Of a stretch of DNA of 42,134 nucleotides, positions 13,149-23,755 are shown one piece after another. The notes below the pieces were generated by a model. That model searched no databases, was not told the origin of the DNA, and was given only the letters and a program-made list of their open reading frames with translations. The position numbers and the translations under genes were made by a program. Positions within the stretch are counted from its first letter, which is position 1, and each line of letters begins with the position of its first letter. The stretch comes from Deltaproteobacteria bacterium (GTDB taxonomy: Bacteria > Desulfobacterota > Syntrophobacteria > BM002), in NCBI GenBank assembly GCA_020353215.1, contig CP070692.1, positions 126,666-168,799 of the forward strand, written 5' to 3'.

Positions 13149-16100
13149 ATGAGGCTTCGCACTATTTTACTGGTTTTAGCCTTGTTGGCCTTTCTGTTTG
13201 CATCCATCGGCGGGTATCTTTATTACTCTGCTCTCAAAGAATCGGCGTTTAAGGAGGCAGACAGGCAAACTGCATCGCATGCGAAGAGACTTAGAAGTCA
13301 TGTGGTCTCGACTCTGTCGGAAAACCAAAAAGCGGTGAAGGCTTTGGCCGGACTGAGGGAATTGGAGCGAGCCCTGGTTAGCCCAAGTGAAATCAACCTA
13401 AGAAAGACAAATTTCATTCTGGACCATTTTCACGATGCCTTAGAGGTAAGCGTCTGTTACTTGATGGACCGAGATGGAAATACCATCGCTTCCTCAAATC
13501 GAAACGATTCTGCCAGTTTTGTGGGAAAAAATTACGGTTTTCGCCCATATTTCCGACAGGCTATGCAGGGTAGTCCTGCCGTATACATGGCGCTGGGTGT
13601 TACTTCGAAAAAGCGGGGAGTCTATTACAGTCATCCGGTTTATGGATTGAACGAAGACGCTCCAATCGGGATAGTTGTAATCAAGGCATCCGTCGAATCT
13701 ATGGAACAAGGGTTCAGCCAAAATCATGAAGGAATTGGACTAGTTACGGATCCGCATGGGGTCATCTTCGCTTCGAATCGTAGAGATTGGCTTTATCATG
13801 TGTTGTGGGAAGTCTCGCCTGAAGAAACATCCGAGATTGTCGAGACCCGCCAATTTGGTAAGGGACCGTGGAAATGGACTGGCCTGTCGATGAAGAGCCA
13901 GAATCACGCTGTTGATGTTTCAGGAAATAGATATCTGATCTATCAAATGAAGATTGGCAACTATCCGGGATGGAATGTTACTTATCTGGTCAGTCTCAGT
14001 GCAATTCATAAGAGTGTTTTCGATCCTCTCATTGGCACCAGTGGTTTCGTAATCGTCAGCTTATGTGTTCTGATCGGATTATCCGTCTTCTTTCTCTACA
14101 AAATAGCGAGCCATGATATTGTCCAACGTAAGCGGGCAGAGGATGCGCTTCGGGAAAGTGAAAAGAAATTCCGTGCCATTACTGGGACTGCCGTGGATGC
14201 AATCATCCTCATGGATAGTAAAGGGAAAATTTCATACTGGAATCCGGCAGCGGAAAGAATGTTTGGTCACAGCACTACGGAGGCCATCGGCCAGGAACTC
14301 CACCTTTTCCTCGCCCCGCAGCAGTACCATGAACTATCTAAAAAGGGATTCAATACGTTTCAGACAACTGGAAAGGGCCCGATTGTTGGGAAGACAGCCG
14401 AATTCTTGGCTATCAGGAAAGACGGAACACAGTTTCCCATAGAGGTTTCTACTTCAGCCCTGGAGGTCAAAGGTGAGTGGCATGCTGCAGGTATTCTTCG
14501 TGACATTAGTGAACGTAAGAGTGCAGAGAAGGAACTTAATCTGCAAAAGACTTACTTCCAACACCTTTTTGAAAATTCACCTGAAGCTAGCGCCATATTA
14601 GATAATGAAGATAGGATTGTTGACGCAAACAAAGAATTCGAGCAACTTTTTCAGTATTCGATTGGTGAAATCAAGGGAGAATTTATCAACGACTTAATAA
14701 TAAGTGATGATTTGCTTCATGAAGCAAAATCTCTGACTAGGCAAGTCTTAAACTGTCAAGTAATAAAGAAAGAAACTACGAGAAAACGTAAAGACAATAC
14801 CATTGTTGATGTTTCAGTTCTAGGTTATCCAATTACATTCAACGATGAACAAGTAGGTACTTATGCAATATATCAAGACATTAGCGAACGGAAGCAAGGA
14901 GAAAAAGCACTGAGAGCTTCCGAGAAACAATATAGGAATCTCGTCGATAACGCTCTAGTTGGAATTTATAAAACTGACCTTGATGGTAATATTCTCTATG
15001 CAAATGATGCTCTTATAAAAATGTTGGGATTTGAATCAATTGAAGAGATGACTTCTATTGGGGTCATTAATAGATATAGAAATATTAAAGATAGAATGGT
15101 ATTAGTTGAAAATCTTAAGAAAGCGGGTAAAGTTAACAATTTTGAAGTGGAACTTCTCACGAATACCGGAGATGTAAAGAATGTAATCTTAACTGCACTG
15201 CTTGAGGAGAATGTTATATCGGGAATGATCATGGATATTACGGACCGTAGACGTGCGGAGGAGGAGCGAATTCGGTTGGCAACAGCAGTGGAACAGGCTG
15301 CTGAAAGCGTTATCATATCAGACAGACGCGGAACGATCCGCTATGTCAATCCGGCCTTTGAGAGACTCAGCGGTTTTCGTCGAGAAGATATCCTTGGTCA
15401 AAACTTCCGCATTCTCAAAAGTGACAGGCACGATGAGAGTTATTACCAGAGAATGTGGGATACCATCTCTTGTGGTAGGGTGTGGTCGGGCCGCATAAAC
15501 AACAGGATGAAAGACGGCACCGTCTGTGAATTTGAGACAACAATCTCGCCCCTCCGAGACAGCTCGGGAGCCATTGTAAACTTTGTTTCTGTGAACCGCG
15601 ATGTAACTCAAGAAGTTGCACTTGAAGCCCAGCTTCTTCAGGCCCAAAAGATGGAAGCGGTAGGCACCTTGGCCGGAGGCATTGCACACGACTTCAACAA
15701 CCTGCTACAGGTCGTCCAAGGTTACGCTGACGTGCTCCTTCTGAGCATGGATCTCGGCGATTCGCAGCGCTTGGCACTGCAAAAGATCCATCGCTCAGCC
15801 AGGAGAGGCGCCGAGCTTACGCAACAATTGCTCACCTTCAGTCGCAAGGTGGAGAGCAAGAGGCGAATTCTGGACCTCAACCGTGAGGTGGAGCAGGTGA
15901 GGAAGCTTCTTGAACGAACTATTCCCAAGATGATCGAGATAGAACTATGTCTGGCGAGTGACCTAATGAGAGTAAAAGCAGATCCAGCACAGATGGAGCA
16001 AGCAATTATGAACCTGGCGGTAAATGCCAAAGATGCCATGCCGGATGGGGGTAAGATCAGCATTGAGACGGCGAATGTTACCCTGGATGGGACTCACTGT

Positions 16101-16781
16101 GAGACTCACCTGGGAACGGGTCCCGGCAAGTACGTAAAGGTGAGCATCTCGGATACAGGTCATGGCATGGACCGAGAAATCGTAGAACATGTGTTTGAGC
16201 CATTCTACACCACAAAGGAGGTTGGCAAAGGAACCGGTCTAGGCCTCGCCATGGTCTACGGAATTGTCAAAAGTCATGACGGCCACATCCTATGCCACAG
16301 TAGCCCTGAGATGGGAACCACCTTCAAGATTTACCTGCCAGCCATCGAACAGGAAAGTGAGAAGGGAGAGACAGAAGATACGAAAACTCCCGTAAACGGA
16401 GGCACAGAGACGATCTTGTTGGTGGATGATGAGGAGTTGATCAGGGAGCTTGGAGTCGAGCTGTTTGGAGATGCCGGCTACAGGGTACTGACAGCCGCTG
16501 ACGGACCAAGTGCCCTTCAGCTCTATCGGCAGGAAAAAGACAAGATTGATTTGATAATCCTCGACCTTATCATTCCTGGCATTGGGGGGGGCAAGTGTCT
16601 TGAAGAAATTCTCAGAATCAATCCCCGAGCAAGGGTCCTTGTTGCTAGTGGCTATTCGGCCGATGATCCTTTACGGGAAGCGGTGACGTCAGGGGCAAGG
16701 GCTCACATCAGCAAACCATACAATGTAGGGCAGATGCTGGCGTTGGTCCGGGAGGTGTTGGATCAAGATCGAGAACCCTAA
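13149..16781 (+). CDS. membrane hybrid histidine kinase: Cache, four PAS, HisKA/HATPase, receiver
   Basis: A 1210-residue sensor. TM1 is at 5-25. A periplasmic dCache-type sensor (~30-290) is followed by TM2 (~295-320; IVSLCVLIGLSVFFLYK). PAS domains begin near 336, 462, 587 and 707 (each with WNPAAERMF- or YVNPAFERL-like cores). The dimerisation domain has phospho-acceptor H847 in GGIAHDFNNLLQVVQGYADVL. The ATPase has N-box NLAVNAKDAMPDGG, G1 DTGHGMD (~1005) and G2 GKGTGLGLAMVYGIV. A C-terminal receiver (~1088-1205) has VDDEE, phospho-acceptor D1139 and the conserved KPY. The HDFNN H-box is typical of deltaproteobacterial hybrid kinases. The Cache domain suggests an extracellular small-molecule ligand. 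GAGGAGAGA precedes the ATG. It converges on a double-receiver regulator, which could be in the same pathway. Confidence 0.95.
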   Translation: MRLRTILLVLALLAFLFASIGGYLYYSALKESAFKEADRQTASHAKRLRSHVVSTLSENQKAVKALAGLRELERALVSPSEINLRKTNFILDHFHDALEVSVCYLMDRDGNTIASSNRNDSASFVGKNYGFRPYFRQAMQGSPAVYMALGVTSKKRGVYYSHPVYGLNEDAPIGIVVIKASVESMEQGFSQNHEGIGLVTDPHGVIFASNRRDWLYHVLWEVSPEETSEIVETRQFGKGPWKWTGLSMKSQNHAVDVSGNRYLIYQMKIGNYPGWNVTYLVSLSAIHKSVFDPLIGTSGFVIVSLCVLIGLSVFFLYKIASHDIVQRKRAEDALRESEKKFRAITGTAVDAIILMDSKGKISYWNPAAERMFGHSTTEAIGQELHLFLAPQQYHELSKKGFNTFQTTGKGPIVGKTAEFLAIRKDGTQFPIEVSTSALEVKGEWHAAGILRDISERKSAEKELNLQKTYFQHLFENSPEASAILDNEDRIVDANKEFEQLFQYSIGEIKGEFINDLIISDDLLHEAKSLTRQVLNCQVIKKETTRKRKDNTIVDVSVLGYPITFNDEQVGTYAIYQDISERKQGEKALRASEKQYRNLVDNALVGIYKTDLDGNILYANDALIKMLGFESIEEMTSIGVINRYRNIKDRMVLVENLKKAGKVNNFEVELLTNTGDVKNVILTALLEENVISGMIMDITDRRRAEEERIRLATAVEQAAESVIISDRRGTIRYVNPAFERLSGFRREDILGQNFRILKSDRHDESYYQRMWDTISCGRVWSGRINNRMKDGTVCEFETTISPLRDSSGAIVNFVSVNRDVTQEVALEAQLLQAQKMEAVGTLAGGIAHDFNNLLQVVQGYADVLLLSMDLGDSQRLALQKIHRSARRGAELTQQLLTFSRKVESKRRILDLNREVEQVRKLLERTIPKMIEIELCLASDLMRVKADPAQMEQAIMNLAVNAKDAMPDGGKISIETANVTLDGTHCETHLGTGPGKYVKVSISDTGHGMDREIVEHVFEPFYTTKEVGKGTGLGLAMVYGIVKSHDGHILCHSSPEMGTTFKIYLPAIEQESEKGETEDTKTPVNGGTETILLVDDEELIRELGVELFGDAGYRVLTAADGPSALQLYRQEKDKIDLIILDLIIPGIGGGKCLEEILRINPRARVLVASGYSADDPLREAVTSGARAHISKPYNVGQMLALVREVLDQDREP

Positions 16782-16848
16782 GCTTGAATAATTCACCACT
16801 CGGCTACTCCGACCGCCGATATGAGCGTCCTTCCGAGCGTCTTCGGGT

Positions 16849-16893
16849 CTTGGACCCTGCGACGTACTGTTCAAGTACGTCGCAGGATCCAAG
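16849..16893. repeat. 19-bp near-perfect palindrome, dispersed element copy 2
   Basis: Arms 16849-16867 and 16875-16893 pair at 18 of 19 positions (core CCTGCGACGTAC / GTACGTCGCAGG) around TGTTCAA. It lies between the convergent kinase and regulator genes and may serve as a bidirectional terminator, although no T-run is present. It is related to sequences at 6981 and 19083. Confidence 0.8.
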
Positions 16894-16991
16894 CACTCGG
16901 TCATCAGGAGCTATCAACGGTAGGTAGTAAGAATCCACGCCCCAAAAGCGTAACATTCAAGCCCCAGTAAACCTTTTTGGTAGAAGACAGC

Positions 16992-18719
16992 TCACACATG
17001 GCTCTGAACGATCTCAAGCAGTTCTTTGGGATCGAACGGTTTGGTCAGATATTCTGCAGAACCAGCGAGTTTACCCTTTACCTTATCGAAAAACCCATCC
17101 TTACTCGTCAGTATTATTACGGGAATATGTTTCAGTTGGGAACTATCCTTTATGATGGAGAGTATCTGGTATCCGTCCATCTTAGGAAGGAGCACATCCA
17201 GTAGAATCAAGTCGGGTCTTTCCTCGTTCACTTTTCCAAGTGCCTCGAGCCCGTCTCTAGCCTCTATCACCTTGTATCCATTTTGACTGAGCGTTATGGA
17301 GATTACCTTTCTGGTGGTGGAACTGCCTTCAACAACCAGGATCTTTTTCGCTTTGATCTCTGGCTGGGATGTCACCTCAAGGTCCGGGGTGTTTCTTGCT
17401 CCGGGCAAAGCCCGATCTTTTTCAGTTTCTGAGGAGGCCACATAATCGAGCAAGATGTGGAGTTGATTCGAAAGATATCTTTTGTCCGGAGCCAGTTTCA
17501 CGGTTTTGTGCAACTGCTCCAGTGATTCCTCCCAACGCTTCAGATTGAGATAGGTCATGCCTAAGTAATAGTAGGCCAGCATATTTTCCTCTTTGGCGCT
17601 GACCCTCATGTACCTGTCGATCGCCTGTGACATGATTTCGCTCTTTGCGGAGCGTGGTGAGGTGAAGAATTGCTTGTGTATGTATAGATGAGCCAGGCAG
17701 TAATGACACTGAGTGGTTCTCTCTTCAACAGGAGACCAGCAGAAGGGACAACGACGTACTTTGCTCTCACTTACTGACTTCTTTGCAAGATCTATTTTTC
17801 TAGTTTCTTCAATAACGTCAGGGTCATCTGGGGCAAGCAGGATAGCATTCCTGAGTGATGTCTCTATCGATTTCATGGTTTCCCGGATACGCGAGTACCA
17901 TAACCAACCTTCGTGACTGCGTGGATTTCTTTTCAGGAGCTTGGTGAGTTCTTCCTTGGCTTCTCGGAAGTGCATCGCCTCAGCGAGCGCGATCCCGTTT
18001 TCCAATTGAGCCTCAGTGGGAGATGACGATGAACCCTGGTTTGTTTCGTCCTTGATCCTTGACGCTTCAAGCAACATGTATATGATCGAGGAATCTATGT
18101 ACGCGTCTATCTTCTCGCAGGTGTCGTGAATAAATATCTCAGGTCCGTCCCAGAGTATGATTTCGATGGCGGCATCTTTGCCTCTCAAGCCCCCGGCTTC
18201 GGCGTCGATGAGTCTGCCGTTTCTAAGATAGAGTTGACCGGTCCTCCCTTTTGATCTTACCTCCAGGGTACAGGTCTTCTGCTCTTGTGCTATCATCTGC
18301 AGAAATGTGGACAAGGTAACGCCATGAATGTAGCCCCTGGAGTTCGGTTCCAAGGTTTCAGTTATCGTCTCAGCCAATTCATCAAGCTTCAGCGGTTTCT
18401 TCAGGTAGTGCAAACTACCCATCTTCTTGACGCGTTCTTCCGTATCGGAATTGCCGAACCCGGTCATCACCAGCACGGGAACATCTCGATAGTTCCTGCT
18501 CATGTGGGCCAGGAGTTCAAAACCATTCATTCCGGGCATATTGAGATCCGTAACCACGAGATCCACTTTGGTGGACTCAAGCTTCCGAACAGCCTGCCTA
18601 CCATCGGAAGCGGTTACCACATTCATGGCACCGATAAAGGCTTTGACGCCATCTCTAATCATATTAAGGACAACTTCTTCGTCATCAACCAGCATGATCG
18701 TCTTCATGGTCGAAGCCAA
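16992..18719 (-). CDS. double-receiver regulator with PATAN (DUF4388), TPR and zinc-ribbon segments
   Basis: A 575-residue cytoplasmic response regulator. Receiver 1 (~6-125: MLVDDEEVVLNMI, phospho-Asp in VVTDLNMPGMNG, and LKKPLKLDEL) is followed by a PATAN/DUF4388 domain (~130-215: IHGVTLSTFLQMIAQEQKT ... GQLYLRNGRLIDAEAGGLRG). Then come TPR-like helices (~240-310), a four-Cys zinc ribbon (CPFCWSPVEERTTQCHYC) and more TPR (~375-420). Receiver 2 (~455-575) has LLDVLLPKMDGYQ and ILTSKDG. There is no DNA-binding domain, so output is protein-protein, as in gliding or polarity and chemotaxis-like pathways (inference). The start TTG 18719 is preferred over ATG five codons in, because GGGGAGA lies at ideal distance before the TTG. 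Confidence 0.88.
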   Translation of the reverse strand: MASTMKTIMLVDDEEVVLNMIRDGVKAFIGAMNVVTASDGRQAVRKLESTKVDLVVTDLNMPGMNGFELLAHMSRNYRDVPVLVMTGFGNSDTEERVKKMGSLHYLKKPLKLDELAETITETLEPNSRGYIHGVTLSTFLQMIAQEQKTCTLEVRSKGRTGQLYLRNGRLIDAEAGGLRGKDAAIEIILWDGPEIFIHDTCEKIDAYIDSSIIYMLLEASRIKDETNQGSSSSPTEAQLENGIALAEAMHFREAKEELTKLLKRNPRSHEGWLWYSRIRETMKSIETSLRNAILLAPDDPDVIEETRKIDLAKKSVSESKVRRCPFCWSPVEERTTQCHYCLAHLYIHKQFFTSPRSAKSEIMSQAIDRYMRVSAKEENMLAYYYLGMTYLNLKRWEESLEQLHKTVKLAPDKRYLSNQLHILLDYVASSETEKDRALPGARNTPDLEVTSQPEIKAKKILVVEGSSTTRKVISITLSQNGYKVIEARDGLEALGKVNEERPDLILLDVLLPKMDGYQILSIIKDSSQLKHIPVIILTSKDGFFDKVKGKLAGSAEYLTKPFDPKELLEIVQSHV

Positions 18720-19015
18720 TCGTCTCCCCGTTTTGTTCGTAATGGTTTTGAGTAGGTGGCAGGATCAGCAGTCTTTGGATGATGGCACTTCGGCAGGAAC
18801 AAGATGGTGAAAAAAGCTAAAATATGCAGCGCCCCAGACAAGTTTCAAAAATCTCCCCTTAAAGGAACTACAATAAATTTATGAATTCCGCGCGCCATTA
18901 GATTCACAAGGTGGCAAATTGCAGCTGAAAACAACGTATTAATAATCATTACAGGGGATTAAAACAGTATTCAGGGCCTCCAGGTATGCTACCTGCCCCC
19001 TCCTTCCAGCCCGCA

Positions 19016-19264
19016 TTATTCAGGACCCGCCTGCCACGCCCGCACAGGCAGTTCCTTCCGTGGTGCTTGGCTCTCACACCATACGACGTACTGCTTTAGT
19101 GCACCTCCCGAGTCCCCGCGGTTGGTGGCCCTACCATCTTGACCGTCTGAGGACACCGTTTCATGAATAGCGCAAGCTGGGTGAACCCGGGACACGATGG
19201 AGTCGATAGTTTGCAAGTCTCGTACCAGATGCAGAAAGTCATTCACCCGTTCAAAATTGTGCAT
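19016..19264 (-). CDS. possible small hypothetical protein
   Basis: An 82-codon frame beginning MHNFERVNDFLHLVRDLQTI and continuing SIVSRVHPACAIHETVSSDGQDGRA. The first ~55 residues have plausible protein composition, but the tail runs through the dispersed repeat near 19083, which argues against a conserved C-terminus. GAGAAG lies directly before the ATG, too close for a good RBS. No family recognised. It could be a truncated gene or part of a repeat element. Confidence 0.3.
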   Translation of the reverse strand: MHNFERVNDFLHLVRDLQTIDSIVSRVHPACAIHETVSSDGQDGRATNRGDSGGALKQYVVWCESQAPRKELPVRAWQAGPE

Positions 19265-19301
19265 CTTCTCGTTCTCACTACATTGGGCGGCGATTAATTG
19301 T

Positions 19302-19349
19302 TATAATAGCTTTTGCCATCGATATGGCCGGGATATAAATGATCCTGGC
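19302..19349 (+). promoter_or_regulatory. hgcA promoter -10 and operator-like inverted repeat
   Basis: TATAAT at 19302-19307 is a perfect -10 box; no good -35 is visible 17 nt upstream (TACATT). Just downstream, GCCGGGAT (19327-19334) and ATCCTGGC (19342-19349) form an inverted repeat with one mismatch, positioned where a repressor could block transcription of hgcA. ArsR-type regulators are known near some hgcA genes; none is in this window. Confidence 0.35.
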
Positions 19350-19395
19350 TGCAGGGCAGCTGTGTAGTCGTCAAGGTGATTAAGAGGAAAGCGGT

Positions 19396-20553
19396 ATGGG
19401 AAGGACATCAGATCCCTTCAAAAGTTCTCTGAGCCCGGAGTGCACGACTGCTGTCGGGCAACCTGCCAGTGATCAGCCGTGTTGAGGCCCGAAGACCTCT
19501 CCGGGCGGCGAGGTGGTGGATGAGCAGGCTTCTTGGTTCATGGGCTGGATCGAGACTCCCGTAGGCAGGGTTGCTGGGGTATCTACGAAGTGGACACCCC
19601 GGGATAAGCTGGGACAAACCCTGGTGCGGATGGGCATAAAGCGCATGCGGTATACGGTTGCGACGGGGCTTTACGCTATTGGCGAGCCGGATTTTGATTC
19701 TCCGGTCTTGGTCACTGCAAACTACAAATTGAGTTTTGATTTGCTTCGCCGGGAACTCGCGGGAAGAAACCTCTGGCTGTTAGTCTTGGAAACCTTCGGC
19801 ATTAATGTCTGGTGTGCGGCCGGCAAGGGCACCTTTGGGACCTCTGAGTTGGTGAACCGTATTCGAAAGGTGCAACTTGCCACAGTTGTTAAACACCGGA
19901 ACGTCATCTTGCCCCAACTGGGAGCGCCCGGGGTGGCGGCACATGAGGTAAAAAAGGCGACGGGCTTCCGGGTGCGGTACGGGCCGGTGAGAGCTCAGGA
20001 CTTGCCGGGATACCTGGACAATGGAATGAAGGTCTCGGAGGAGTCCAGAAGGGTGCGTTTTCCCCTCAGAGACCGGTTGGTTTTAACCCCGGTAGAGTTG
20101 GTGCAAGCTTGGAAGCCGTCACTGGTCATTTTATTGCTTCTTTTCGTTCTCAGTGGATTAAGTCGGCAAGGGTTTGACCTTCATGCAGCTGTATCCCGAA
20201 GCTTTGCTCCTATTTTGATCTACCTCGGCGCCCTCCTGACGGGATCACTGATCACCCCTGCATTTCTTCCCTGGATTCCCGGGAAAGCCTTCTCCCTGAA
20301 AGGAACGCAGCTTGGATTGCTGTGGGCACTGTTTGTAAGCTTCACCGTGGCCTCAGATTGGAGTGGGGCCAATTTAGTTGCTCTTTTCTTACTGGCCCCG
20401 GCAGTTGCCGCGTATTTTGCCATGAACTTCACTGGCTGCTCTACTTTCACCTCACTCTCAGGGGTGAAGAAGGAGATGCGCATCGCGGTACCAGTGATTA
20501 TTTTATCCATCGTGTCAGGAGGGATAGTCCTGCTGGTAGGTAGCCTCTCTTGA
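19396..20553 (+). CDS. hgcA: mercury-methylating corrinoid protein HgcA, with in-frame TGA (candidate selenocysteine) near the N-terminus
   Basis: HgcA transfers a methyl group from its corrinoid to Hg(II). The cap-helix signature NVWCAAGKGTFGT is present (C140 counting from ATG 19396), with upstream SPVLVTANYKLSFD and downstream ILPQLGAPGVAAHEVKKATGF and YGPVRAQDLPGYLDNGMK, and about five C-terminal TM helices (from ~PSLVILLLLFVLSG). ATG 19396 has AGAGG eight bases upstream and is in frame with the body. The only interruption is TGA 19483-19485 (codon 30) in Q-P-C-[TGA]-G-P. HgcA N-termini often carry Cys-rich segments here. The alternative starts GTG 19513/19516 have GAGG abutting or 2 nt away, badly spaced. 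A SECIS-like hairpin lies exactly where required. Full length would be 385 residues, within the family's range. Alternatives: a short upstream ORF with GTG start, or a nonsense mutation. Confidence 0.9.
19495..19514 (+). promoter_or_regulatory. SECIS-like hairpin downstream of the hgcA TGA
   Basis: ACCTC (19495-19499) pairs with GAGGT (19510-19514). After a T-C mismatch, CC pairs with GG, leaving the apical tetraloop GGGC (19503-19506). The loop begins with G and opens 17 nt after the TGA, meeting bacterial SECIS criteria. The GTG alternative starts lie in or next to its 3' arm. Confidence 0.55.
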
Positions 20554-20561
20554 GGAGAGAA

Positions 20562-20855
20562 ATGGAATTTCGTTACTTAGAAAATGTCGTCACTCTGGAG
20601 TTGGACGGAGACAGGTGCACAGGCTGCGGCATGTGCACCCAGGTGTGCGTCCAGGCTGTACTCGCATTGAATGACGGAGTTGCGTACATCGTGGACAGGG
20701 ACGGTTGTATGGAATGTGGGGCCTGCGCAATGAACTGTCCGGTGGCGGCGCTAATGGTGCGTCCTGGAGTTGGCTGCGCTTGGGCGGTGTTTACCGACTG
20801 GTTCAAAAAGAAGAATGTCTCGAGCCAAGAGGGCAGCGAAAACATTCGCTCATGA
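20562..20855 (+). CDS. hgcB: HgcB, 2[4Fe-4S] ferredoxin of mercury methylation
   Basis: A 97-residue ferredoxin directly after hgcA (8 nt gap), required with HgcA for Hg methylation; it is thought to reduce the HgcA corrinoid. Cluster motifs: C19TGCGMC25TQVC29 and the HgcB-specific C49MECGAC55AMNC59P. A conserved single Cys follows in GVGC72AW. ATG 20562 is chosen because GAGGAGAG lies just upstream; TTG 20550 overlaps the hgcA stop and is less likely. Odd points: Pro normally after the fourth Cys of the first motif is Val, and the C-terminus (SSQEGSENIRS) lacks the vicinal Cys pair found at the end of most HgcB proteins. Confidence 0.95.
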   Translation: MEFRYLENVVTLELDGDRCTGCGMCTQVCVQAVLALNDGVAYIVDRDGCMECGACAMNCPVAALMVRPGVGCAWAVFTDWFKKKNVSSQEGSENIRS

Positions 20856-21039
20856 ATGCAGCGGGGATAGTGTAGCTTGCCCGATTCCTGCAGCGAAATG
20901 GAGTCACCAGAGGATGGGTTAAGAATTCAGACCTATTGCAACGCAAGGCATCAGGCTTAGGGCAGAGAGAGTAGGGAAAGAAAAAGCTTACCGTACGGTT
21001 TGATCCTTTAGCCCTATTCCATTTCCGAAAGGAGATAAT

Positions 21040-21246
21040 ATGGAGAACAAAACACTGTCCGTACCCAATATCTCATGCGGCCACTGTGTGGCAGCCATCA
21101 AGAAAGAACTCAGTGAGATGGAGGGGGTTTCCAGAGTGGAAGGGGATCCTGCGACCAAGAGCATCACCCTGGAATGGGATGCACCGGCCACTCTGGACAA
21201 GATTAGAGATATGCTGAAAGAGATCAACTATCCGGCAACCGATTGA
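21040..21246 (+). CDS. HMA-domain metallochaperone, CopZ-like
   Basis: A 68-residue heavy-metal-associated domain protein with metal site ISCGHC (CxxC) and the ferredoxin-like fold pattern ending AEINYPA-like. It would bind Cu(I) and pass it to the ATPase 58 nt downstream. Its RBS is AAAGGAG. The 184-nt gap after hgcB shows no terminator, so cotranscription with hgcAB is possible. Hg(II) binding by the CxxC is chemically plausible but not indicated by sequence. Confidence 0.9.
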   Translation: MENKTLSVPNISCGHCVAAIKKELSEMEGVSRVEGDPATKSITLEWDAPATLDKIRDMLKEINYPATD

Positions 21247-21304
21247 CCAGTACGCATTTAGGAAGGCAAACGCTTGCGTTACGAGGCGAACGAAGTGAGT
21301 AACT

Positions 21305-23755
21305 ATGATCAGTGAAAGCATAACCATCCCCATTACGGGAATGAGTTGCGCCAATTGCGCCATGAACATTGAGAGAAACCTGAAGAAACTTCGAGGGGTT
21401 AAAGACACGAACGTCAACTTTGCAGCGGAGCAGGCCTCCGTCTCCTTTGACCCAAAAGAAGTCCGGGTCATCGATCTTGTTGAGAACATCCAGGCCGCGG
21501 GTTTCAACACACCGACCGCTAAGGTTGAGCTGCCCATCACGGGAATGACCTGTGCCAATTGCGCCATGAACATTGAGAGAAACCTCAGCAAAAAGGTCCA
21601 GGGCGTAGTAACCGCTTCCGTCAATTTTGCCAGTGAACGAGCAACCATCGAGTACTTGCCAACCGTAACCAGTGTGGATGAGATCGTAGCAGCTATCGAA
21701 GGCGCCGGCTTTGGGGCCATTTTCCTGGATGAACCAGAGGAAGAGGATGTGGAGCAAAAAGCGCGGCGTGCAGAAATAGCTGATCAGACCAGCAAGTTTG
21801 CCGCAGGTCTCGTCTGCACTATACCCCTGTTCTTGTTGAGCATGGGAAGGGATTTTGGTCTTCTGGGAACCTGGAGCCATGCTGCCTGGGTCAACTGGGC
21901 CTTTTGGGCCTTGGCCACGCCCGTCCAGTTCTATACTGGGTTGGATTACTACGTTGGTGGCTGGAAAAGTTTGAAGAACCGCAGTGCCAATATGGACGTT
22001 CTGGTGGCCTTGGGCTCATCAGTTGCGTACTTCTATTCCTTGGCGGTTCTCCTCAACCCGTCTCTTGGCAGTCACGTTTATTTCGAAACCTCGGCAATGA
22101 TCATCACCCTGATCAAGCTGGGTAAGATGTTGGAGGCCCGTGCCAAGGGCCGAACCGGGAACGCGATCCGCAAGCTCATGGGCTTGCGCCCAAAGACCGC
22201 AACCGTCCTCAAGAATGGCAAAGAAGTGGAGATATCCCTGACCCAGGTGAAGGTGGGAGATCTCGTCATCGTTCGCCCGGGAGAAAAGATTCCGGTGGAT
22301 GGACTAGTTCTGGAAGGGCAGTCGGCCGTGGATGAATCCATGTTGACCGGTGAGTCACTGCCCGTGGACAAGGGCCCGGGAGACGTTGTGGTGGGAGCAA
22401 CCATCAATACGGAAGGCCGTCTGAGGTTCCAGGCAACCAAGGTAGGCAAGGACACGGCGTTAGCCCAAATCATACGCTTGGTGCAGGAGGCCCAGGGTAG
22501 CAAGGCTCCTATTCAGGCCGTAGCCGACCGAGTGGCCGCTGTATTCGTACCTGCGGTGATTGCCATTGCAGGGTTCACCTTCATTCTCTGGTGGGGCCTT
22601 GGTGGGGAGTTTGTTCCGGCGATGATCCGCTTGGTTGCTGTTCTCATCATTGCGTGCCCTTGTGCCATGGGCCTTGCCACCCCAACGGCAATCATGGCGG
22701 GAACCGGGAAAGGAGCGGAAAGGGGCATCCTTTTTAGGAATAGTGAAGCCCTGGAAAGAGCCACGAAACTGAAGACCATCGTTCTCGACAAAACAGGAAC
22801 CATTACCAAGGGCAAACCGGCTGTGGCTGATATCATTTCGTTCAGCTCGTCATCACCAGTACAGGACGAAGGAGAGCTTCTCAAGCTTGCAGCTTCAGTT
22901 GAAAGAGGATCAGAGCACCCAGTGGGGCGGGCCATAGTAGATGAAGCGGAAAGAAGGGGTCTGGAACTTTTTGAACCCGAGGAGTTCCGTGCCACTGGCG
23001 GAGCGGGGGTTCAAGCCAGAGTAAATGGAAGGTTGGTATACGTGGGCAGGCCCGACTGGTTCATGGAAATGGGGGTCAATATTGACGACGCACGCACGGA
23101 TATCCAAAATCTGCAGAGCCATGGGAAAACCATGATGGCTGTGGTGGTGGAGACACGGCTGGCAGGGTTAATTGCTGTTGCCGATTCCTTGAAATCCGAC
23201 TCAAAGGAGGCTGTGGAAGGTCTTCGCCGCCAGGGCTTGATGGTGGTCATGCTCACCGGCGATAATATACAGACTGCTCGGTCGATTGGAGGCCAAGTCC
23301 ACGTGGATGAAATCGTCGCTGAGGTCCGCCCCGACGAGAAATCTCTGAAGGTCAAGGAACTACAGGACAAAGGCCGCATGGTTGGAATGGTGGGTGACGG
23401 GATAAATGACGCCCCTGCCCTCGCACAGGCTGATGTTGGGGTAGCCATCGGTACGGGAACTGATGTGGCCATCGAGACCGCCGACGTAATTCTTGCTAGC
23501 GGCAATCTCTTGGGTGTGCCTCGGGCAATTGAACTTAGTCGGGCCACCATGAGAACCGTGAAGCAGAATCTCTTCTGGGCCTTTATTTACAACATTGTGC
23601 TCATTCCCGTCGCTGCCGGGTTGCTCTACCCCTTCGAAGTCCTGCCAGATTTTCTCAGACAGTTACACCCAATTCTCGCGGCCTTCGCCATGGCCATGAG
23701 CAGCATCACTGTAGTCTCTAACAGTCTGCGGCTATATCGGGCAGACATTGCTTGA
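21305..23755 (+). CDS. copA: copper-translocating P1B-type ATPase
   Basis: An 816-residue inner-membrane Cu(I) exporter. Two N-terminal HMA domains (GMSCANCA at ~13, GMTCANCA at ~80) precede eight TM helices. Catalytic motifs are all present: LTGESLPV, the transmembrane metal site [13 protein letters not shown], phosphorylation site DKTGTITKG (D495), [16 protein letters not shown] and [24 protein letters not shown]. The N-terminal HMA repeats and the CPC plus C-terminal [13 protein letters not shown] identify a CopA-type pump rather than Zn or Cd. It forms a unit with the CopZ-like gene. The neighbourhood with hgcAB is a metal-handling island. Confidence 0.95.

What the first reader, a model, noticed from the sequence alone, without database searches (positions are those of the whole stretch)
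19396..20553. HgcA with a candidate selenocysteine: in-frame TGA plus SECIS-like hairpin
Seen: ATG 19396 has a well-spaced RBS and is in frame with the HgcA body; the only obstacle is one TGA (19483-19485) in Q-P-C-[TGA]-G-P. A hairpin (19495-19514) with apical loop GGGC opens 17 nt after it. The only starts that avoid the TGA are GTGs with RBS-like bases abutting them, in or beside the hairpin. Known: bacterial SECIS elements sit 16-37 nt after UGA with G at the loop start; many HgcA N-termini have Cys residues here. Inference: Cys-Sec near the N-terminus could bind Hg(II) with higher affinity than Cys-Cys and deliver it to the corrinoid. I know of no reported Sec-HgcA.
Basis: partly seen in the sequence, partly recalled or inferred. 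Interest (0 to 1): 0.95.

Follow-up and report, generated by a model that had tools for sequence, protein, structure and literature searches.

The report
Selenocysteine in a mercury-methylating protein
The mercury-methylating protein HgcA of this bacterium likely carries selenocysteine, the rare selenium amino acid, next to a cysteine in its N-terminal tail, where the pair would bind mercury; selenium forms of HgcA were already predicted in print in 2023, so this is a well-supported new example rather than a new kind of protein.

Summary
The window encodes a true HgcA (NF040863, 455.8 bits, cut-off 275) whose one in-frame TGA lies in C-[TGA]-G-P. A TGA sits 28-34 codons before the conserved core in 57 of 129 HgcA loci; 40 of the other 72 have Cys-Cys in the tail. 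Between the TGA and the GTG that would avoid it, five family members show purifying selection (pN/pS 0.21; core 0.23; upstream control 0.91). Hairpins after the 57 TGAs beat synonymous-codon controls (0 of 200), though this window's own hairpin is ordinary alone. The genome has selA, selB, tRNA-Sec and selD. Sec-HgcA (motif CU) was reported by Haft and Gwadz (2023), seen here only through later papers. What the calls add: Sec persists where the neighbouring Cys is moved or lost (10 of 57), this window's HgcB has lost every tail cysteine, and this family has metal-binding (HMA) genes beside hgcAB. Mercury binding by the Cys-Sec tail is inferred, not shown.

The parts
19384..19388 (+). likely ribosome-binding site GAGGA before ATG 19396
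   Evidence: sequence; consensus only
19396..20553 (+). hgcA, 385 residues with the TGA read as Sec (stop 20551-20553)
   Evidence: NF040863 455.8 bits, cut-off 275; NVWCAAGK motif; 75% identity to a same-family genome from GTG 19513 on
19441..19443 (+). Cys16 codon; a Cys lines up here in 5 of 5 family members compared
   Evidence: alignment
19480..19482 (+). Cys29 codon (TGT) of the Cys-Sec pair
   Evidence: Cys at this position in 47 of 57 TGA-bearing loci
19483..19485 (+). TGA predicted to encode selenocysteine 30
   Evidence: TGA 28-34 codons before the core in 57 of 129 HgcA loci; selABCD in the genome
19495..19514 (+). SECIS-like hairpin, loop GGGC (19503-19506)
   Evidence: covariation in relatives; alone not above controls
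19513..19515 (+). GTG, first start codon that would avoid the TGA; absent in 2 of 5 family members
20562..20855 (+). hgcB, ferredoxin with Cys at GVGC and no Cys in its C-terminal tail (ends ENIRS)
   Evidence: NF040864 117 bits, cut-off 99
21040..21246 (+). small heavy-metal-associated (HMA) domain protein
   Evidence: PF00403 57.3 bits
21305..23755 (+). P-type metal ATPase with two HMA domains
   Evidence: PF00122, PF00702, PF00403

Best explanation
The TGA at 19483-19485 of this hgcA is likely read as selenocysteine, giving the corrinoid protein HgcA an N-terminal tail whose Cys29-Sec30 pair is predicted to bind Hg(II) (or methylmercury) and hand it to or from the corrinoid. Shown by calls: the frame, the recurrent TGA position, Cys-Cys in the tail of many homologues, selection on the codons between the TGA and the GTG, covarying hairpins after the TGA in relatives, and complete Sec machinery. 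Inferred: that the cell inserts Sec here, that the tail is flexible, and that Cys-Sec is a mercury ligand doing the job proposed for the HgcB C-terminal Cys pair of strain ND132. This window's HgcB has no tail Cys, so here the HgcA pair would be the main tail-borne mercury ligand.
For: TGA 28 to 34 codons before the core in 57 of 129 loci; 40 of the other 72 with CC in the last 45 codons, for example PPCCGPP in L044 against PPCUGPP in L045. Five family loci: pN/pS 0.21 between TGA and GTG 19513, 0.32 over all 29 codons after the TGA, core 0.23, upstream control 0.91. Hairpin score 5.92 against 3.70 +/- 0.14 in synonymous controls (0 of 200) and 3.84 at the same place in 66 non-TGA loci; second loop base G in 52 of 57. 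Covariation in a 15-row subset: 14 double-changed cells, covariation score 0.471, 0 of 500 shuffles for both. Own genome: tRNA-Sec 74.8 bits, anticodon TCA; selB 386.5; selA 588.5; selD 374 with one TGA, apparently in GGUACK. The 57 TGA loci lie in genomes with a strong tRNA-Sec (55) or, for the other 2, with SelB over cut-off. A named strain, Pelotalea chapellei DSM 13688, has the same CUGP (L238). ND132 HgcB with both C94 and C95 changed to Ala loses 95% of activity (PMC7305189 passage).
Against: This window's hairpin alone is matched by 1775 of 5000 synonymous controls, its fold is not better than shuffles, and in its own stem register the 15-row subset shows no significant covariation. In the subset's register two of the five measures are weak: pairs with a change on both sides (4; 88 of 500 shuffles reach it) and further pair types (10; 17 of 500). 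The codons from ATG to TGA are only weakly constrained (pN/pS 0.65). The tRNA-Sec association is weak (p 0.036) because 57 of 68 non-TGA loci also lie in tRNA-Sec genomes. In 10 of 57 TGA loci there is no Cys at -1, so the pair is not universal. No peptide, selenium or mercury-binding data.
Confidence: 0.85

Rival explanations
1. Ordinary translation from GTG 19513 (or ATG 19540); the TGA is just an upstream stop and HgcA lacks the tail.
For: The GTG frame is open for 346 aa and the NF040863 match starts only at residue 60. GTG at this or the next codon is present in 4 of 5 family members.
Against: pN/pS 0.21 between TGA and GTG; GTG 19513 itself is absent in L010 and L042, and L042 lacks the next one too; TGA 28-34 codons before the core in 57 of 129 loci, with CC in the tail of 40 others.
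Confidence: 0.04
2. Sec is inserted, but its role is redox or structural (for example protecting or reducing the Co-S centre) rather than mercury binding.
For: Many known selenoproteins are redox enzymes (established knowledge, recalled). Sec stays when the -1 Cys is gone in 10 of 57 loci, so a vicinal chelating pair is not always needed; 5 of those have Cys at +1 instead.
Against: Homologues often carry repeated CC motifs in the tail (L011, L013, L024, L038), like metal-binding tails, and the window's tail has no CxxU or UxxC motif.
Confidence: 0.25
3. Sequencing error or pseudogene: the TGA is really TGC/TGT or the gene is decaying.
For: One genome, reads not seen; among same-family relatives G401, G399 and G405 give only partial hgcA matches (L043 from G401 is partly masked).
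Against: A TGA in the same place occurs in 4 further same-family loci and 52 other loci, each from a different genome; the core is under selection.
Confidence: 0.02

Closest known systems
Sec-containing HgcA, motif CU (Haft and Gwadz 2023; NF040863), as listed in PMC13188914
   Same: Same family model, same Cys-Sec motif, predicted from UGA aligned to Cys (passages of the review)
   Different: No difference found. The original paper is not held, so its exact positions could not be compared; here HgcB is the Cys form and has no tail Cys
Sec-containing HgcB, motif GVGU (same source)
   Same: Partner protein of the same pathway; L231 (Anaeromonas) has both C-TGA in HgcA and GVG-TGA in HgcB
   Different: This window's HgcB has GVGC
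HgcB C-terminal Cys pair of Pseudodesulfovibrio mercurii ND132 (Cys94/Cys95)
   Same: Vicinal thiols on a flexible tail proposed to deliver Hg(II) to the corrinoid (PMC7305189 passages)
   Different: Here the pair is Cys-Sec and sits on HgcA, while the HgcB tail has none
MerA C-terminal Cys pair
   Same: Tail-borne thiols that hand Hg(II) to an active site (described in PMC7305189 passage)
   Different: Unrelated protein, reduction rather than methylation

Membership tests
HgcA | NF040863 above curated cut-off | tested here: met
   455.8 bits against 275
HgcA | cap-helix motif N(V/I)WCA(A/G)GK (recalled) | tested here: met
   GINVWCAAGKGTFG
HgcA | hgcB immediately downstream | tested here: met
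   NF040864 117 bits against 99
HgcA | C-terminal transmembrane domain of five helices | not tested
   no separate prediction; the model match runs to residue 383 of 385
HgcA | mercury methylation activity | not testable with these tools
   none
selenoprotein | in-frame UGA aligned with Cys or UGA in homologues | tested here: met
   57 of 129 TGA; 40 of the other 72 have CC in the last 45 codons of the tail
selenoprotein | bacterial SECIS hairpin after the UGA | tested here: inconclusive
   met for the family; this window alone not above controls
selenoprotein | selA, selB, selC, selD in the genome | tested here: met
selenoprotein | selenium in the protein | not testable with these tools
   needs mass spectrometry or 75Se labelling
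HgcB of ND132 type | Cys residues in the C-terminal tail | tested here: not met
   no Cys after GVGC and no CC in any of the three frames of 20791-20930; still an HgcB by NF040864
Sec-HgcB | UGA at the GVG(C) position | tested here: not met
   GVGC in the window

The most novel reading that the evidence does not exclude
In this bacterium the Cys-Sec tail of HgcA has taken over the mercury-delivery work of the HgcB C-terminal cysteines, which have been lost; selenium, not the vicinal dithiol, is the essential ligand (Sec persists where the partner Cys is moved or gone), and the neighbouring HMA protein and metal ATPase feed or clear the mercury of this selenium-dependent methylation module.
Probability: 0.2. 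Interest if true: 0.65.

Novelty: new member of a known kind. Interest (0 to 1): 0.35.

Why it matters
It would tie the selenium supply of anaerobes to the protein that makes methylmercury: if Sec is needed, selenium availability would limit or tune methylation in many uncultured methylators, and gene catalogues that start hgcA after the TGA would miss the likely mercury-binding tail. In this sample 57 of 129 HgcA loci carry the TGA, so truncated annotation could be common.

Tried and rejected
Chance upstream stop with a GTG start: rejected on selection and conservation.

Complementary tails (HgcA tail Cys/Sec only where HgcB lacks tail Cys): rejected as a general rule; most loci listed have both. 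Only the window, L089 and L133 of 108 HgcB read (131 rows examined; the others were cut off or missed by the motif, among them L010, whose HgcB was read by eye and and ends ACCD) lack tail Cys before the first stop, too few for statistics. In L133 a TGA followed by a Cys-rich stretch stands in the tail, and L199, a fourth in the wider count of 174, is masked.

Sec confined to Sec-capable genomes as a strong test: weak, because most HgcA genomes here have the machinery (p 0.036). The two TGA loci without a strong tRNA-Sec (L071 in G299, L130 in G118) have SelB over cut-off. A same-family fragment, in G399, also has a TGA and no strong tRNA-Sec, but SelB; it was not in the count. Weak tRNA-Sec matches ring in all genomes, controls included, so I used my own cut of E up to 1e-9.

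Covariation in the window's own stem register: not significant; the family subset, 15 of 57 rows chosen by eye for similar tails, uses a shifted register. L042, L110 and L111 have loop GGGC at the window's position with higher scores (7.6-7.8 against 5.4).

Rfam scan of 16500-21500: only chance snoRNA matches below gathering score. Zhang and Gladyshev 2008 (PMC2398784), cited by the review for HgcA, holds none of the three terms searched in its main text.

Rows dropped: duplicates by sequence; partial matches at contig ends (such as G137, G152, G019, G244) were not fetched; L145 and L148 (no cap-helix motif) before the 129; L146, L147, L031 (N-terminus cut) and L088 (masked) before the 125; G399 and G405 fragments left out of the five-locus selection test; L200, L212 and L217 set to non-Sec by eye although a TGA lies in range (L217, T-U-A-T-S-C, may be real).

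Full report
WHAT IS THERE. The window lies in one 4.70 Mb contig (G000). ATG 19396, with GAGGA seven bases upstream, opens a frame that runs to a stop at 20551-20553 with a single internal TGA at 19483-19485. The product is HgcA: NF040863 at 455.8 bits against a cut-off of 275, with the NVWCAAGK cap-helix motif; hgcB follows at 20562-20855 (NF040864, 117 against 99).

IS THE TGA A SEC CODON? I took 129 HgcA loci from 126 genomes, found by a phylum search (296 of 395 genomes had some match, many of them to distant relatives) and a class search (52 of 55), with region fetches. A TGA stands 28 to 34 codons before the core in 57 of 129; of the other 72, 40 have CC within the last 45 codons, 16 have C without CC, and 16 have none. 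The latter two groups include rows that are cut, masked or not clear orthologues (L031, L088, L146, L147). In five same-family loci (two further family genomes hold only fragments) the nine codons between the TGA and GTG 19513 show pN/pS 0.21, against 0.23 for the first 150 codons of the core, 0.65 from ATG to TGA and 0.91 for the same frame upstream of the ATG. GTG 19513 is missing in two of the five; one of these has the next codon as GTG. A simple GTG start is therefore very unlikely.

HAIRPIN. Scored with one rule for all (loop 3-6 nt), the 57 stretches after the TGA average 5.92, against 3.70 +/- 0.14 for versions with synonymous codons (0 of 200 as high) and 3.84 for 66 loci without the TGA (Mann-Whitney p 1.7e-13, relatedness not corrected); the second loop base is G in 52 of 57. 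In a 15-row subset, chosen by eye from the 57, 14 cells are changed on both sides and the covariation score is 0.471, each reached by 0 of 500 shuffles; four of seven pairs have such changes, which 88 of 500 shuffles also reach. The window's own hairpin is in a register shifted against that subset and by itself is matched by 1775 of 5000 controls; its simple fold is not remarkable. So the family carries the SECIS evidence, and this single copy does not.

MACHINERY. The genome has tRNA-Sec (74.8 bits; anticodon TCA), selB (386.5 bits), selA (588.5) and selD (374, with one TGA inside). That TGA appears to lie in GGUACK (that this is the SelD active-site region is recalled), so Sec is very likely used elsewhere in the cell. 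Over 126 HgcA genomes, 114 had a tRNA-Sec over Rfam's cut-off (62 of 64 and 52 of 62). Of the 57 TGA loci, 55 lie in genomes with a strong tRNA-Sec (E up to 1e-9) and the other two in genomes with SelB over cut-off; of 68 non-TGA loci, 57 lie in genomes with a strong tRNA-Sec (p 0.036). Of the 17 genomes searched for SelB, three were not over cut-off (G288, G283, G378); these also lack a strong tRNA-Sec, and their HgcA (L075, L113, L122) has no TGA in that place.

VARIATION. Sec is the fixed point by choice of the set; 47 of 57 have Cys at -1. Of the ten others five have Cys at +1 (L055, L057, L070, L110, L111), one has Cys at -2 (L073), and four have no Cys within two residues (L062, L085, L095, L130). 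On a FastTree of 196 cores (66 scored Sec) the Sec state needs at least 16 changes, six forced by well-supported branches, against 55 for shuffled labels: Sec is inherited in clades but has been gained or lost repeatedly. Pelotalea chapellei DSM 13688 and a Nitrospirae bacterium record carry it. Anaeromonas frigoriresistens D2Q-11 (Bacillota) has C-TGA further upstream (-46) together with GVG-TGA in HgcB.

HOW IT LIKELY WORKS. [quoted passage not shown] their double mutant loses 95% of activity (PMC7305189, passages), and a 2024 paper suggests a role for them in the second half-reaction (PMC11588087, passages). I infer that the Cys-Sec tail of HgcA is a second carrier of the same kind, with a selenolate as the stronger mercury ligand (general chemistry, recalled). 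In this window the HgcB tail has no Cys at all, one of 3 such among 108 HgcB read; the other two, L089 and L133, have CC and several Cys respectively in the HgcA tail. No frame of 20791-20930 encodes CC, so the HgcA pair would have to do this work. A third tail cysteine, Cys16, lines up in the 5 family members compared.

SURROUNDINGS. Downstream are an HMA-domain protein and a P-type metal ATPase with two HMA domains. The small HMA protein and the start of a two-HMA protein are also present in L010, L041 and L042; L043 is masked in that stretch and cannot be judged. The same motifs, which do find the window's ATPase, were found within 4 kb downstream in 0 of 59 named HgcA loci with at least 3 kb of sequence, out of 80 fetched. 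The 184-base gap after hgcB means co-transcription is not established.

WHAT IS KNOWN. A 2026 review (PMC13188914; passages) lists HgcA with motif CU and HgcB with GVGU, citing Haft and Gwadz 2023 (J Bacteriol 205:e00259-22), and for HgcA also a 2008 paper. The 2023 paper is not held here, so I have not read it. [quoted passage not shown] The listings showed no title or abstract start with experimental proof of Sec in HgcA; that is not proof of absence. I saw no mention of UC or lone-U forms of HgcA in the passages read.

VERDICT. Real, well supported, already described as a kind; a new member with an unusual partner (a tail-less HgcB) and unusual neighbours.

Noticed in passing
window 21040-23755: HMA-domain protein and two-HMA P-type metal ATPase next to hgcAB; the HMA protein and the start of a two-HMA protein also in L010, L041 and L042; motifs found near 0 of 59 named HgcA loci checked
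   Followed up: partly
window 20562-20855: HgcB without any tail cysteine, one of 3 among the 108 HgcB read
   Followed up: partly
L133 (G265), hgcB tail: in-frame TGA near where a relative (L109) has Cys, followed by a Cys-rich stretch ending CC and a stop: possible Sec in the HgcB tail, a position other than GVGU
   Followed up: no
L231, Anaeromonas frigoriresistens D2Q-11: C-TGA in the HgcA tail and GVG-TGA in HgcB in one Bacillota strain
   Followed up: no
L055, L057, L070, L110, L111; L062, L085, L095, L130; L073: Sec position kept while the neighbouring Cys is moved to +1, lost, or at -2
   Followed up: partly
window 13149-16781 (+) and 16992-18719 (-): large PAS/dCache hybrid histidine kinase and a protein with response-regulator, DUF4388 and TPR matches upstream of hgcA
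   Followed up: no
L157 (own genome): selD itself carries a TGA, apparently in GGUACK
   Followed up: partly
window 20995-21062: sub-threshold Rfam match to SNORD98, a eukaryotic snoRNA; taken as chance
   Followed up: no
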